Source: Actinomycetota bacterium
GTDB taxonomy: Bacteria; Actinomycetota; Thermoleophilia; Gaiellales; Gaiellaceae
Assembly (NCBI GenBank): GCA_020029595.1
Contig: JAIBJN010000019.1
Coordinates: 1 to 32,848 of the forward strand
DNA length: 32,848 bases
Reading direction: 5' to 3'
Position 1 is the first letter of the stretch, and each line of letters opens with the position of its first letter. The position numbers and the translations under genes were made by a program. Shown one piece after another: positions 510-32,848 of this stretch. Below the pieces are notes generated by a model. That model had not been told where the DNA came from. It searched no databases and saw only the letters and a list, made by a program, of their open reading frames with translations.

Positions 510-1877
510 CTACAGCTCCAGATCCCGGGCCGCGAAGTGCACGGCCTCGGAGAAGGACGGGAACGGCTGGATCGTGTCGCGGAGGACGTCCACGTTCACC
601 TCGGCGCGGATCGCCAGCGTCAGCTGGCCGATCCACTCGCCGGACTCGGGGCCGACGGCCGTCGCCCCGACGAGCACGCGCCGCTCGGGATCGGCGTAGA
701 GCTTCAGGAGCCCGGGCCGCTTCGGCCGCTGAAACGTGGACGTGCGGGAGACGGACTCGAGCCTCCACGAGGACGTGACCGCGCCCTCGCCGCTCGTGTC
801 ACCTGCCACGGCGACCTGCGGGTCGGTGAAGACGCAGGCGGGGATTGCGCGGTAGTCGGCGCGTGCGCCCTTCCCGGCGACGTTGGCCGCCGCGACGCGG
901 CCCTGGTACTTCCCGACGTGCGTGAAGAGTGCGACGCCGGTCACGTCCCCCGCTGCCCACACGCCTTCCCCGGCCGCGAGGCGCTCGTCGACGGCGATGC
1001 CCCTCTTCCCGATCGTCAGGTCGAGGCGCTCGAGGCCGAACCCGTCCACGTTGGGCTTTCGGCCCGTGGCGACGAGGAGCCGCTCGGCCTCGACGGGCTC
1101 CTCGTCCTCGAGCTCGAGCCGGAAGGGTGCGCCGCCTCCTCCTCCTCCTCCTCCTCCTCCTCCTCCTCCTCCTCCTCCTTCCACGCGGGTCGCCGTCGCG
1201 CCGAGGCGGAGCTCGATCCCCTCCTCCCGAAAGGTCTCGGCGAGGATGTCGGCGGCCTCCGGGTCGACCTGCGGAAGGAGGCGGTCGCCGTTTTGGACGA
1301 GCATCACGCGTGAGCCCAGGCGAGCGTAGACCTGCGCGAGCTCGCAGCCGACGGCGCCGCCGCCGACGACGATGAGGCTCTCTGGGACGGTGCTCGCGCT
1401 CGTCGCCTCCCGGCTTCCCCAGTGTGCGACCTCGGCCAGGCCCTCGACCGGCGGCGCGACCGGTCGGGAGCCGGTGGCGAGGAGGAGCGCGTCGTAGGGG
1501 AGCTCGCGCTCGCCGACCTTGACGAGCCCGGGCTCGGCGACGACGCCCGTCCCGCGCACGAGCGTCGCGCCCTGCTTCCGCACCCACTCCGCCTGGCTCT
1601 GGTCGTCCTTCTCCGCCACCTGGTCCCGCCACCAGAAGACCCGTGCTGCGTCTACGGTGGCGACGGCCTCGGCCGCCCCCGGCGCGAGGCGCGCACGGGC
1701 GACGACCTCGAGCGGCCGCAGGAGCGTCTTCGACGGGATGCAGGCCCAGTAGGAGCACTCGCCGCCGACGAGCTCGTGCTCGACGACCGTGATCTCAGCG
1801 TCCGGATCGAGGCGGGCGAGCGCGGCGAGGAAGGCCTCTCCTGTGGCCCCCGCGCCGAGGACGACGACTCGCTTCAC
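510..1877 (-). CDS. Pyridine nucleotide-disulfide oxidoreductase (dihydrolipoamide dehydrogenase/mercuric reductase-like)
   Basis: A 455-residue FAD- and NAD(P)-dependent flavoprotein of the Lpd/MerA/glutathione-reductase family. It shows the FAD motif VVVLGAGATG (residues 4-13), the redox-active CxxxxC disulfide in GGECSYWACIPSK (C41 and C46), the NAD(P) motif VVGGGAVGCELA (170-181), the ATG motif LLVATGRKPN, and the second FAD motif VWAAGDVTG. The C-terminal dimerisation domain normally carries a His-Glu dyad; here the stretch is PFPSFSEA, with Phe439 in place of the His and Glu444 kept. Residues 234-249 are sixteen consecutive glycines encoded by a GGA microsatellite. The GTG start abuts the TAA of nuoN (TAAGTG), so it is translated as the last gene of the nuo operon. 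The substrate is unknown. It is not next to the 2-oxoacid dehydrogenase genes, so calling it their E3 would be unsupported. Confidence 0.88.
   Translation of the reverse strand: MKRVVVLGAGATGEAFLAALARLDPDAEITVVEHELVGGECSYWACIPSKTLLRPLEVVARARLAPGAAEAVATVDAARVFWWRDQVAEKDDQSQAEWVRKQGATLVRGTGVVAEPGLVKVGERELPYDALLLATGSRPVAPPVEGLAEVAHWGSREATSASTVPESLIVVGGGAVGCELAQVYARLGSRVMLVQNGDRLLPQVDPEAADILAETFREEGIELRLGATATRVEGGGGGGGGGGGGGGGGAPFRLELEDEEPVEAERLLVATGRKPNVDGFGLERLDLTIGKRGIAVDERLAAGEGVWAAGDVTGVALFTHVGKYQGRVAAANVAGKGARADYRAIPACVFTDPQVAVAGDTSGEGAVTSSWRLESVSRTSTFQRPKRPGLLKLYADPERRVLVGATAVGPESGEWIGQLTLAIRAEVNVDVLRDTIQPFPSFSEAVHFAARDLEL
1135..1179. repeat. Trinucleotide microsatellite (CCT)15, read as (GGA)14 in the flavoprotein
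   Basis: Fifteen uninterrupted CCT units run from 1135 to 1179. On the coding (minus) strand they give fourteen GGA glycine codons, followed by two GGC codons. All other glycines nearby use mainly GGC/GGG, so the tract arose by slippage rather than by selection for codons. Changes in copy number would stay in frame and alter only the length of the glycine linker. Confidence 0.97.
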
Positions 1878-30218: not shown

Positions 30219-30653
30219 TCATAAAGCCTGATGGGCCAGGATTTCGCGTGCCTTCTCGGCCATCTCACGCTCTCCCCTGTAGGCGAGCAGGCGCGGAGCC
30301 TCCTCGAGCGGGAGCCACCGCGTCGCGTCGACCTCGTGAGCGAGCTCCGGCGGGATGTCGCCGAGGCGGCCGCGACGGTACCGGAAGAGATAGAAGCTCA
30401 CGATCTTGAAGACGCGCTCGCCTTCCCACGTGTAGACGTAGCGCACGTCGCCCAGCTTGCCGACGAGGCGCCCCTCGACGCCTGTCTCCTCGGTCACCTC
30501 GCGGGCGGCGGTTTCCTCGGGCCTCTCGCCGCGGCCGATCAGCCCCTTCGGGAGTGCCCAGACCTCCTTCCCGCCGGGTCGGATGGCGGCCAACCGCCAG
30601 CCTCCGCGCAAGCGGCGGACGACCACTCCCCCGGCCGAGAACTCGCGACGCAT
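30219..30653 (-). CDS. Nudix hydrolase
   Basis: A 144-residue pyrophosphohydrolase. The Nudix box Gx5Ex7REUxEExGU is complete: GLIGRGERPEETAAREVTEETGV (first G at residue 37; catalytic REVTEE). The N-terminal SAGGVVVRR and the ALPKG strand before the box resemble the MutT/Ap4A hydrolase subgroup, but the substrate cannot be named. The ATG at 30653 diverges from the MFS gene across 26 bases. Its stop lies 31 bases before the ASCH start on the same strand, so the two may share a transcript. Confidence 0.93.
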   Translation of the reverse strand: MRREFSAGGVVVRRLRGGWRLAAIRPGGKEVWALPKGLIGRGERPEETAAREVTEETGVEGRLVGKLGDVRYVYTWEGERVFKIVSFYLFRYRRGRLGDIPPELAHEVDATRWLPLEEAPRLLAYRGEREMAEKAREILAHQAL

Positions 30654-30679: not shown

Positions 30680-31843
30680 GTGCGCCGCCTCCTCCTCCTC
30701 GTCTGCGCGATCGTGCTCGCAGACACGGTGCTCTACTCGGCCCTCGCGCCGCTCCTCCCGCACTACGCGGACGAGTTCGGGCTCTCGAAGGGCGAGGCCG
30801 GGCTCCTCGTCGGCGCGTACGCGGCGGGCGCGCTGCTCGCCGCCCTCCCCGGAGGTCTTGCGGCCGCCCGCTTCGGCCCGCGTCGTGCGGTGATCGGCGG
30901 GCTCGTGCTCATGGCCGTGGCCAGTGTTGCGTTCGGCTTCGCGGACTCCGCGCCCGCGCTCGGCCTCGCGCGTCTCGCACAGGGAGTCGGCAGCGCGCTC
31001 TCCTGGACGGGCGGCCTCGCCTGGCTCGTGGCGGGGACCCCGCGCGCGCGGCGCGGAGAGATGATCGGGACGGCGATGGGCGCCGCGATCTTCGGTGCTC
31101 TCCTCGGGCCGGCCGTAGGCGCCGTCGCGGAAGCGCTCGGCTCCCGCGTCGTCTTCTCCGCCATTGCGGGGATCTCGCTCCTGCTCGTCGGCTGGGCGCT
31201 GCGGACGCAAGCGGTCGCAGCCGACCCGCAGCCCGCGCGTGCCTATCTTCGGGCGGTTCGCGAGCCGGTCATCCTCGGTGCGCTGTGGCTCATCGTCCTG
31301 CCCGCGGTCCTCTTCGGCGTCATCTCCGTGCTCGTACCTCTCGAGCTCGGCGACGCCGGCTGGAGCGCAGCCGCGATCGCCGCCGCCTTCATCGGCTCCG
31401 CGGCGATCGAGATGGTGGTGGCTCCGCTTCTCGGCCGCTTCTCCGACCGGCGAGGGCGCCTCCTCCCGCTCCGGATCGCCCTCGCCGGGGGCGTCGCGGT
31501 TACGACTGGGCTCGCCTTCGCCGGCCGGCCCGCGGTCGTCGTCGTCCTCCTCGTCGCCACGGCGGTGACCTTCGGCGCCTTCTGGGCGCCGGCGATGGCG
31601 CTTCTCGCCGACGGCGCCGAGCGCATGGGGCTCGCGCAGGGCCTCGCCTTCGGGCTGCTGAACGCCTCCTGGGGCGCGGGAAACTCGGTCGGACCGCCGC
31701 TCGGCGGCGCCCTGGCCGACCTCGGCGGAGACGCGCTCCCCTACGCTCTCCTGGCGCTCGTCTGCGCGGTCACGCTCCTCGCCGTCTCCCGAGGACGCCG
31801 GCTCCTTGGCACTCCGCTCGCCCGAGTGCCAGAGAGCTCTTGA
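30680..31843 (+). CDS. Major facilitator superfamily transporter
   Basis: A 387-residue transporter with about 12 hydrophobic helices. The motif A-like loops AARFGPRRAVIGG (TM2-3) and GRFSDRRGRLLPLR (TM8-9) are both present. The first helix LVCAIVLADTVLYSALAPLLPHY resembles drug/H+ antiporters of the DHA1 type. The substrate is unknown. The start GTG 30680 follows a TAGCAT box by 6 bases, so the mRNA may be leaderless. The last 13 codons contain a complete CIRCE operator of the downstream groESL operon, which constrains the C-terminal sequence TPLARVPESS. Confidence 0.9.
   Translation: MRRLLLLVCAIVLADTVLYSALAPLLPHYADEFGLSKGEAGLLVGAYAAGALLAALPGGLAAARFGPRRAVIGGLVLMAVASVAFGFADSAPALGLARLAQGVGSALSWTGGLAWLVAGTPRARRGEMIGTAMGAAIFGALLGPAVGAVAEALGSRVVFSAIAGISLLLVGWALRTQAVAADPQPARAYLRAVREPVILGALWLIVLPAVLFGVISVLVPLELGDAGWSAAAIAAAFIGSAAIEMVVAPLLGRFSDRRGRLLPLRIALAGGVAVTTGLAFAGRPAVVVVLLVATAVTFGAFWAPAMALLADGAERMGLAQGLAFGLLNASWGAGNSVGPPLGGALADLGGDALPYALLALVCAVTLLAVSRGRRLLGTPLARVPESS
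31806..31832. promoter_or_regulatory. CIRCE operator 1 (HrcA site), inside the MFS coding sequence
   Basis: TTGGCACTC (31806-31814), 9-base spacer, GAGTGCCAG (31824-31832). It matches the CIRCE consensus TTAGCACTC-N9-GAGTGCTAA closely and has the exact spacing. It lies upstream of the -35 of the groESL promoter, 70 bases centre to centre from CIRCE 2. Confidence 0.9.
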
Positions 31844-31870
31844 TCCGACCGCTCCGATTTAAGGTAGGAT
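31840..31870 (+). promoter_or_regulatory. groESL promoter
   Basis: TTGATC (31840-31845) and TAGGAT (31865-31870) are spaced by 19 bases, slightly long. The predicted start near 31877 falls in CIRCE 2. The promoter is framed by the two CIRCE elements. Confidence 0.55.
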
Positions 31871-31875
31871 CTCCG

Positions 31876-31902
31876 CTGGCACTCGATTGAGTCGAGTGCC
31901 AG
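31876..31902. promoter_or_regulatory. CIRCE operator 2 (HrcA site) in the groESL leader
   Basis: CTGGCACTC (31876-31884), 9-base spacer, GAGTGCCAG (31894-31902), a perfect inverted repeat. It overlaps the expected transcription start, the usual position for HrcA heat-shock repression. Confidence 0.95.
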
Positions 31903-31936: not shown

Positions 31937-32275
31937 ATGAACCTTCAGCCACTGGGCGATCGCCTGATCGTCGAGGCGCTCGAGGAGGAGGAGACGACCG
32001 CGAGCGGCATCGTCCTCCCGGACACCGCCAAGGAGAAGCCGCAGCGCGGCCGCGTCCTCGCCGTCGGCCCCGGCCCCCGGGACGAGGACGGCAACTACGT
32101 GAAGATGGATCTCGAGGAAGGTGACGAGATCATCTTCTCCAAGTACGGCGGCACCGACATCAAGCTCGGCACGGATGAGTACCTCATCCTGCGCGAGTCG
32201 GACGTGCTCGCGAAAGTCGTCGGGACCACCAAGAGCAAGAGCAGGAAGAAGGAGCTGGCCGGCGCCGCCGCCTAG
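31937..32275 (+). CDS. groES: Co-chaperonin GroES
   Basis: A 112-residue co-chaperonin that caps GroEL. Typical segments are [40 protein letters not shown] (mobile loop region with the GIVLP tripeptide) and [17 protein letters not shown]. It is about 12 residues longer than most because of a tail [15 protein letters not shown] after the last strand. AAGGAGGAG lies about 8 bases before the ATG, a strong ribosome site in contrast to the leaderless genes nearby. It is under two CIRCE elements, so it should be induced by heat through HrcA. Confidence 0.98.

Positions 32276-32312: not shown

Positions 32313-32848
<536 letters not shown>

What the first reader, a model, noticed from the sequence alone, without database searches (positions are those of the whole stretch)
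31806..31902. Two CIRCE operators for groESL, one inside the end of an MFS gene
Both elements have the exact 9-base spacing and near-consensus arms, 70 bases apart, and bracket the promoter. The upstream one lies fully in the MFS coding sequence and fixes its last residues. HrcA bound there could also act as a roadblock to MFS transcription, linking a transporter to heat shock.
Basis: partly seen in the sequence, partly recalled or inferred. Interest (0 to 1): 0.5.

Follow-up and report, generated by a model that had tools for sequence, protein, structure and literature searches.

The report
Two heat-shock switches around chaperonin promoter
The chaperonin (groES-groEL) promoter of this actinobacterium carries two copies of a well-known heat-shock repressor site, one of them hidden in the last codons of the gene before it; the pair recurs across its bacterial class, so it is a variation on a known switch, and nothing found here ties the transporter gene to heat shock.

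Summary
Confirmed: two CIRCE (HrcA-operator) palindromes with perfect TGGCACTC-N9-GAGTGCCA cores lie 70 bp apart before groES-groEL. Site 1 lies wholly in the last codons of an MFS gene; site 2 at the expected start site. They are the only exact copies in the assembly, which encodes HrcA. Site 1 is kept in the same genus (15 of 16 core bases). In the family, 5 of 5 groES-adjacent MFS genes end in GT-x3-RVP, spelled by the operator, against 0 of 20 MFS homologues elsewhere; sister families read the operator in another frame. So DNA is conserved, not protein.

A roadblock or transporter/heat-shock link is not supported: in family f10, 61 of 72 loci are double whichever way the neighbour points; in f8, 16 of 16 loci with a same-strand neighbour have one site. 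Best reading: two HrcA operators flank one promoter and tighten groESL repression; gene compaction explains the overlap.

New: doubled CIRCE recurs in class Thermoleophilia with clumped spacing (about 29, 49, 60, 65-73, 74-80 bp), hinting at helical phasing (not proved). No binding or expression data.

The parts
31806..31832 (.). CIRCE site 1 (upstream HrcA operator), inside the last codons of the MFS gene; perfect core 31807-31831
   Evidence: same genus and other relatives have a counterpart mostly 67-73 bp upstream of site 2
31876..31902 (.). CIRCE site 2 (downstream HrcA operator), ends 34 bases before the groES start codon, at the expected transcription start
   Evidence: 212 of 215 groES loci examined have a CIRCE of at least 14/16 upstream
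31840..31845 (+). candidate -35 box TTGATC; contains the MFS stop codon TGA (31841-31843)
   Evidence: sequence; TTGA boxes at the same place in relatives, read by eye; MFS stop codon inside TTGA in 4 of 5 f1 and 3 of 4 f2 MFS-groES loci, 0 of 12 in f3
31865..31870 (+). candidate -10 box TAGGAT, 19 bases after the -35
   Evidence: TANNNT starts 12 bases before the site 2 core in 17 of 60 loci of the 65-73 bp class (16 of 60 have it at 16 bases); generic scan negative
30680..31843 (+). MFS transporter gene whose 3' end carries site 1 (tail GTPLARVPESS)
31937..32275 (+). groES (Cpn10)
32313..32848 (+). groEL (Cpn60), runs off the window
30219..30653 (-). NUDIX gene; in family members without the MFS gene this or the gene next to it lies divergent before groES

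Best explanation
Both palindromes are HrcA operators of the groESL promoter. At normal temperature HrcA dimers sit on site 2 (over the start site) and on site 1 (just upstream of the -35 box), so that RNA polymerase is shut out from both sides; on heat shock HrcA is lost and groESL is transcribed. Site 1 lies in MFS codons only because the MFS gene abuts the promoter so closely that its end runs through the operator and stops in the -35 box; the operator dictates the last MFS residues. Shown: the sites, their conservation, their place around promoter boxes shared with relatives, HrcA in the genome, DNA rather than protein constraint. Inferred: HrcA binding, repression, the start site, and that the second site strengthens repression.
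For: Perfect cores, the only exact copies in the assembly, both before groES. HrcA (PF01628, E 5.5e-36) is encoded, followed by a DnaJ-like ORF. The same-genus genome keeps both sites (L082). Pairs 50-80 bp apart recur: 74 stretches in a scan of one genome per species, 72 with groES beside them; in an even sample of the phylum 5 of 38 genomes inside the class (own genome included) and 0 of 358 outside. Promoter boxes lie between the sites in relatives. The operator is read in frame 1 in the own family (5 of 5) and in frame 2 in the 10 f2/f3 loci where it overlaps the MFS end, giving unrelated peptides from the same DNA. Rare codons CTT, ACT, CGA, CCA spell the arms; synonymous choice at local usage would give them with chance 1.8e-6. 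GT-x3-RVP tail in 5 of 5 groES-adjacent and 0 of 20 other family MFS homologues (read from the listing).
Against: No binding or expression data. In family f1, 39 of 43 loci with an opposite-strand neighbour have one site only, and f8 has one site in 16 of 16, so site 1 is not needed for groESL control as such. The generic promoter scan found nothing. The codon test is post hoc. Site 1 RNA also folds into a stable hairpin (z -2.36).
Confidence: 0.75

Rival explanations
1. The two HrcA dimers act as one unit: they contact each other across the promoter on a fixed face of the helix (short loop or bridged array), so their spacing is held to about 10-bp steps. This is a stronger form of the best explanation.
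For: Exact pairs are clumped: 28-30 and 48-50 (15 of 399 class genomes, nothing else between 23 and 53); 59-61, 67-75 and 77-80, plus one at 50, among the 72 with groES; none at 81-111 in 399 genomes. On 66 distinct genus/spacing pairs the best period is 10.15 bp, R 0.47, p 2e-4 against smoothed nulls.
Against: Genera are not fully independent; with one value per cluster p is 0.05 (five clusters) or 0.02 (four). The main cluster is wide: with mismatches allowed, values run 65, 67-76, 78-80, and the exact scan has one pair at 65 without groES (L127). A plain ladder predicts clusters near 39 and 90: one weak pair at 39 (L035), none at 81-111. Site 2 lies at different distances from the -10 box in different classes, but phasing against RNA polymerase instead of HrcA against HrcA could give the same steps.
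Confidence: 0.3
2. Site 1 is a roadblock: HrcA bound there stops polymerases arriving from the MFS gene, insulating groESL from read-through (or trimming MFS mRNA).
For: In the relatives' set, MFS directly before groES and site 1 go together (20 of 21 against 11 of 60); no intrinsic terminator was found between the genes.
Against: Class-wide the neighbour's direction does not predict site 1: f10 double in 24 of 27 opposite-strand and 37 of 44 same-strand loci; f8 single in 16 of 16 same-strand loci; leaving f1 out, 62 of 111 same-strand and 28 of 41 opposite-strand loci are double. L022, L049, L054 and L064 keep site 1 with an opposite-strand neighbour; L071 has the MFS gene without site 1. 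The tree gives too few independent changes.
Confidence: 0.15
3. Site 1 is kept as an RNA hairpin at the 3' end of MFS mRNA (stability or termination) rather than as a DNA operator.
For: Stable predicted hairpin, -22.6 kcal/mol, z -2.36. CIRCE in RNA has been linked to mRNA stability in B. subtilis and Rhodobacter capsulatus (discussion passage and reference title in PMC3207917).
Against: No terminator found. In 98 site 1 copies the letters are kept: 738 of 784 pair cells are consensus, 23 are one-sided G-U, 19 one-sided and broken, 4 changed on both sides and still paired, 3 of these at the outermost pair. Site 1 also occurs in loci whose upstream neighbour is on the opposite strand, where it would not be that gene's 3' end.
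Confidence: 0.05
4. Site 1 is a chance palindrome or a protein-coding constraint of the MFS tail.
For: It lies in coding sequence; one other 1-mismatch site in the assembly lies at the 5' end of an unrelated ORF.
Against: 0.00 expected in the window; conserved in place over families while the reading frame changes; tail absent in 20 of 20 non-adjacent homologues.
Confidence: 0.01

Closest known systems
HrcA/CIRCE control of groESL (Bacillus subtilis type)
   Same: Operator palindrome with 9-base spacer, groESL target, operator at the start site, hrcA in the genome. Consensus TTAGCACTC-N9-GAGTGCTAA as given in passages of PMC1676014.
   Different: Two operators flanking the promoter; arms CTGGCACTC/TTGGCACTC. 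That G form is known elsewhere, e.g. Desulfovibrio vulgaris groESL cTgGCACTC-N9-GAGTGCcAA (table passage of PMC545781).
Doubled CIRCE of the Lactococcus lactis dnaK and Lactobacillus plantarum hrcA operons
   Same: Two CIRCE elements in one chaperone promoter region (passages of PMC1676014, and PMC3842655).
   Different: Those are dnaK/hrcA operons of other bacteria; PMC1676014 says the other chaperone operons of lactic acid bacteria then available had a single CIRCE. The passages seen do not mention an operator in a neighbour's codons or phased spacing.
Campylobacter jejuni groESL and hrcA promoters: HrcA at the start site, HspR upstream
   Same: A repressor occupies DNA upstream of the promoter while HrcA covers the start site, and the two cooperate (passages of PMC7464140).
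   Different: There the upstream repressor is HspR; here the upstream site is a second CIRCE.
Mycobacterium tuberculosis groES and groEL2 CIRCE
   Same: Actinomycetota, CIRCE in groE upstream regions (passages of PMC3207917).
   Different: The passages seen do not describe a pair flanking one promoter.

Membership tests
CIRCE / HrcA operator (both sites) | Inverted repeat with 9-base arms and a 9-base spacer close to TTAGCACTC-N9-GAGTGCTAA | tested here: met
   Spacer exactly 9 in both; 8-base core arms perfect; site 1 differs from the generic consensus at 3 bases, site 2 at 4 by reading; the G variant is in print (PMC545781 table passage)
CIRCE / HrcA operator (both sites) | Located in a chaperone (groESL/dnaK/hrcA) promoter | tested here: met
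   groES and groEL directly downstream
CIRCE / HrcA operator (both sites) | HrcA encoded in the genome | tested here: met
   PF01628 E 5.5e-36 at G000:C17; 347 aa ORF directly before a DnaJ-like ORF (DnaJ named by reading)
CIRCE / HrcA operator (both sites) | Conservation of each site in relatives | tested here: met
   Site 2 type in 212 of 215 loci; site 1 in the same genus and in many loci of f1-f5, f10 and f79, absent in 39 of 43 opposite-strand f1 loci and 16 of 16 f8 loci
CIRCE / HrcA operator (both sites) | HrcA binds the site and represses transcription, released by heat | not testable with these tools
   needs footprinting and reporter assays
Roadblock operator for the upstream gene | Presence depends on a same-strand gene upstream | tested here: not met
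   class-wide counts
Helically phased operator pair | Spacing restricted to steps of one helical turn | tested here: inconclusive
   R 0.47 at 10.15 bp on 66 genus/spacing pairs, but p 0.02-0.05 at cluster level and a wide main cluster
Helically phased operator pair | Half-turn insertions abolish cooperation | not testable with these tools
   needs reporter assays

The most novel reading that the evidence does not exclude
Thermoleophilia groESL is controlled by a pair of HrcA dimers that bind cooperatively across the promoter on a fixed helical face (spacings clumped near 29, 49, 60, 70 and 79 bp, none at 81-111 in the genomes searched), a bridged or looped HrcA repression complex that I did not find described for CIRCE in the held library; in the window's family the upstream operator and the -35 box double as the last codons and the stop codon of a transporter gene.
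Probability: 0.3. Interest if true: 0.55.

Novelty: new variant of a known kind. Interest (0 to 1): 0.38.

Why it matters
It turns a single odd overlap into a pattern that recurs in a bacterial class: doubled CIRCE around one promoter with clumped spacing gives a natural series for asking whether HrcA dimers cooperate, which a one-site promoter cannot show. The MFS tail is a clean case of an operator dictating protein sequence, with the same DNA read in two frames in different families. It does not establish a regulatory link for the transporter.

Tried and rejected
Roadblock/insulator as the reason for site 1: tested by neighbour orientation over 206 loci that had at least 600 bases upstream and a site 2 of at least 14/16; fails in f10 and f8. 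The neighbour's direction comes from a simple codon-score gene caller trained on this window and will be wrong for some loci. RNA hairpin/terminator: pair counts and terminator scan. Protein constraint: frame comparison and non-adjacent homologues. MFS/site 1 association by independent pairs on a tree: 1 supported pair (5 on all branches; over random pairings site 1 went the same way in 0.8), no test possible.

The prediction of a further spacing cluster near 90 bp failed: 0 of 399 genomes at 81-111. I read this as an upper limit, but it is also a miss for a plain 10-bp ladder. The rung at 39 is missing apart from one weak pair (L035, 14/16 and 14/16). The gap between 75 and 77 in the exact scan is narrow, and with mismatches allowed 74 (1), 75 (4) and 76 (1) occur.

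Rows dropped before counts: L013, L083 and L084 (duplicates of L082 or L021) throughout; L040 and L042 (no site 2); loci with under 600 bases upstream or without a site 2 of 14/16. Three of the 11 MFS-negative loci counted with site 1, and the three f7 doubles, are half-site matches of 13/16 (L081, L085, L096). For one search the genus/spacing pairs were typed with the genus labels; L035 (39) and the three f7 rows (58, 58, 59) were left out, while other weak sites (13-14/16) were kept. In one search the f7 rows were left out of the site 1 counts. Of the 136 genomes, 132 loci were taken; some genomes gave none and one (G573) gave its CIRCE-free groES copy.

Literature: searches in the held PMC library, seen as listings; PMC1676014, PMC3192767, PMC3842655, PMC3207917, PMC7464140 and PMC545781 were seen as passages only. 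No report of doubled CIRCE in Thermoleophilia was seen in these; the one paper holding both HrcA and Thermoleophilia is a review on fruit and vegetable microbes (listing only). Most subscription papers are not in the library.

Full report
WHAT IS THERE. The window ends with an MFS gene (30680-31843), groES (31937-32275) and the start of groEL (32313-). Two palindromes stand between: site 1 31806-31832 and site 2 31876-31902, both with perfect TGGCACTC-N9-GAGTGCCA cores, 70 bp apart. With 3 mismatches to the generic CIRCE consensus 0.00 are expected in the window. In the whole assembly (G000, 140 contigs) they are the only exact matches; the next has one mismatch, and at 3 mismatches the pattern (20 places) does not exceed its backwards control (31). 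The genome encodes HrcA (PF01628, E 5.5e-36) directly before a DnaJ-like ORF.

WHO IT IS. The same-genus contig G001:C105 (9544 bases) matches the record JAICGP010000105.1, titled Thermoleophilia bacterium isolate CK_bin.5, of the same length and with the same groES and MFS identities, so I take the window to be from Thermoleophilia (Actinomycetota). f10 contains Conexibacter and Paraconexibacter by the same matching of contig lengths (G556, G571, G714).

PROMOTER. Between the sites relatives share a TTGA box about 8-10 bases after site 1 and a TANNNT box before site 2 (read by eye and counted; in the 48-50 bp class the -35 region would overlap site 1). Here these are TTGATC 31840-31845 and TAGGAT 31865-31870, spacer 19. 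The generic scan with 16-18 spacers found nothing, so the boxes rest on comparison. The start site would fall at site 2; site 1 would occupy the DNA just upstream of the -35 box.

CONSERVATION. A groES match was found in 87 of 101 genomes (some are only weak matches to a distant relative), and upstream DNA was read for 83 distinct loci. A site at about -60 is the rule; a second site further up is present in part. The same-genus genome has it: CGGCACTC-AGCTGGCGA-GAGTGCCA, 15 of 16 core bases, spacing 69 (L082). In one search, 20 of 21 loci with the MFS gene upstream have site 1 (>=12/16; 18 at >=14) against 11 of 60 without (7 at >=14); best-of-60 scores in upstream DNA reached 12 or more in 4 of 1580 background draws. 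In f1 loci without the MFS gene a NUDIX gene or the gene next to it lies divergent before groES, except in L040 and L042, two CIRCE-free groES copies.

DNA, NOT PROTEIN. In the own family the operator is read as GT-x3-RVP (L012, L020, L043, L046, L082: 5 of 5); in the 10 f2 and f3 loci where it overlaps the MFS end it is read in another frame, as LAL.. or LSLSH-stop and the like. Twenty MFS homologues of the family that are not next to groES show neither the tail nor a CIRCE in the stretches taken (0 of 20). The arms are spelled with codons that are rare here: CTT 0.04, ACT 0.04, CGA 0.12, CCA 0.05 of their amino acids; the joint chance of the arms by synonymous choice is 1.8e-6 (post hoc). 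In 4 of 5 f1 and 3 of 4 f2 MFS-groES loci the MFS stop codon TGA is part of a TTGA box (L092 of f2 stops inside site 1, L046 of f1 ends further down); in f3 it is 0 of 12, the stop lying in most of them inside the operator spacer or upstream of the operator.

HOW WIDE. A scan of one genome per species for exact pairs 50-80 bp apart gave 74 stretches (two of them from one MAG), 72 with groES beside them. By title 58 name Thermoleophilia or its orders, families or genera (that Svornostia belongs there is recalled), 10 say only Actinomycetota, Actinomycetes or Actinobacteria, and 6 name other groups (Actinoalloteichus, a Proteobacteria MAG, a Bifidobacterium breve MAG, two Myxococcaceae, an Acetobacteraceae MAG; the first two without groES in the stretch). 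In an even sample of the phylum 5 of 396 genomes have such a pair: 5 of 38 in the class, own genome included, and 0 of 358 outside. Single exact sites are in 327 of 399 class genomes.

NEIGHBOUR TEST. With 132 more loci, 206 loci could be classed. f10: double in 24 of 27 with an opposite-strand neighbour, 37 of 44 with a same-strand one, 0 of 1 undecided. f8: 0 of 16, all same-strand. f79: 5 of 15 same-strand, 0 of 1 opposite. f1: 5 of 5 same-strand (all MFS), 4 of 43 opposite. f2: 4 of 4 same-strand. f3: 9 of 12 same-strand, 2 of 2 opposite. Overall 67 of 116 same-strand and 32 of 84 opposite-strand loci are double; without f1 it is 62 of 111 and 28 of 41, so the overall difference comes from f1. 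Lineage, not the neighbour, decides. On a groES-groEL tree of 72 loci of the order, MFS changes at least 5 times and site 1 at least 10, with 1 supported independent pair. The roadblock idea therefore has no support beyond the order.

SPACING. Exact pairs with groES: 50 (1), 59-61 (8), 67-75 (53, of which 40 at 70-72), 77-80 (10); one pair at 65 (L127) and one at 67 (L119) have no groES in the stretch. In 399 class genomes: 28-30 (5) and 48-50 (10), nothing else between 23 and 53, none at 81-111. With mismatches allowed: 28-30 (6), 39 (1), 48-50 (12), 58-61 (9, of which 3 are f7 half-sites), 65-73 (60), 74-80 (13), and 111 single. On 66 distinct genus/spacing pairs the best period is 10.15 bp (R 0.47; p 2e-4 against smoothed versions of the same distribution), but with one value per cluster p is 0.05 (five) or 0.02 (four). 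f2 and f3 sit at 67-69, f1 mostly at 67-70, f10 mostly at 70-73 with other clusters. This fits helical phasing of two HrcA dimers, with each other or with RNA polymerase, and is suggestive only.

RNA ALTERNATIVE. Site 1 RNA folds well (z -2.36), but no terminator was found and in 98 copies letters, not pairs, are conserved: 738 of 784 cells consensus, 23 one-sided G-U, 19 broken, 4 changed on both sides and paired.

VERDICT. The explanation is two HrcA operators for one promoter, with a compact gene end running through one of them. Doubled CIRCE is known from Lactococcus dnaK and Lactobacillus hrcA operons (passages); the flanking pair recurring in one class with clumped spacing, and the coding overlap, are the new parts as far as the held library shows.

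Noticed in passing
G000:C60:12342-12366 (locus L004 1501-1525): A third CIRCE-like site with one arm mismatch lies at the 5' end of a membrane-protein ORF that looks like a glycosyltransferase (by reading). The same-genus genome's three exact sites seem to be its groES promoter sites, one of them on two overlapping contigs, so this one is probably not conserved.
   Followed up: partly
L040 (G005), L042 (G029), L226 (G573): groES copies without any CIRCE upstream; each of these genomes holds another groES match with a CIRCE near it, so a HrcA-free paralogue seems to exist.
   Followed up: partly
L081, L085, L096 (family f7): A half-CIRCE (TGGCACTC) stands 58-59 bp before the full site and runs into TTTGACA, which looks like the -35 box: perhaps a decayed or half operator.
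   Followed up: no
L119, L127, L128, L142, L147, L159: Doubled CIRCE under titles outside the class: Actinoalloteichus, a Proteobacteria MAG, a Bifidobacterium breve MAG, two Myxococcaceae MAGs, an Acetobacteraceae MAG; spacing 65-79. Binning errors or separate origins.
   Followed up: partly
G000:C25:27824-28966 (L369): A second MFS homologue (about 50% identical) of the groES-adjacent one, without the operator-coded tail.
   Followed up: yes
window 510-1877 (-): A dihydrolipoamide-dehydrogenase-like ORF (by reading) holds a long glycine run.
   Followed up: no
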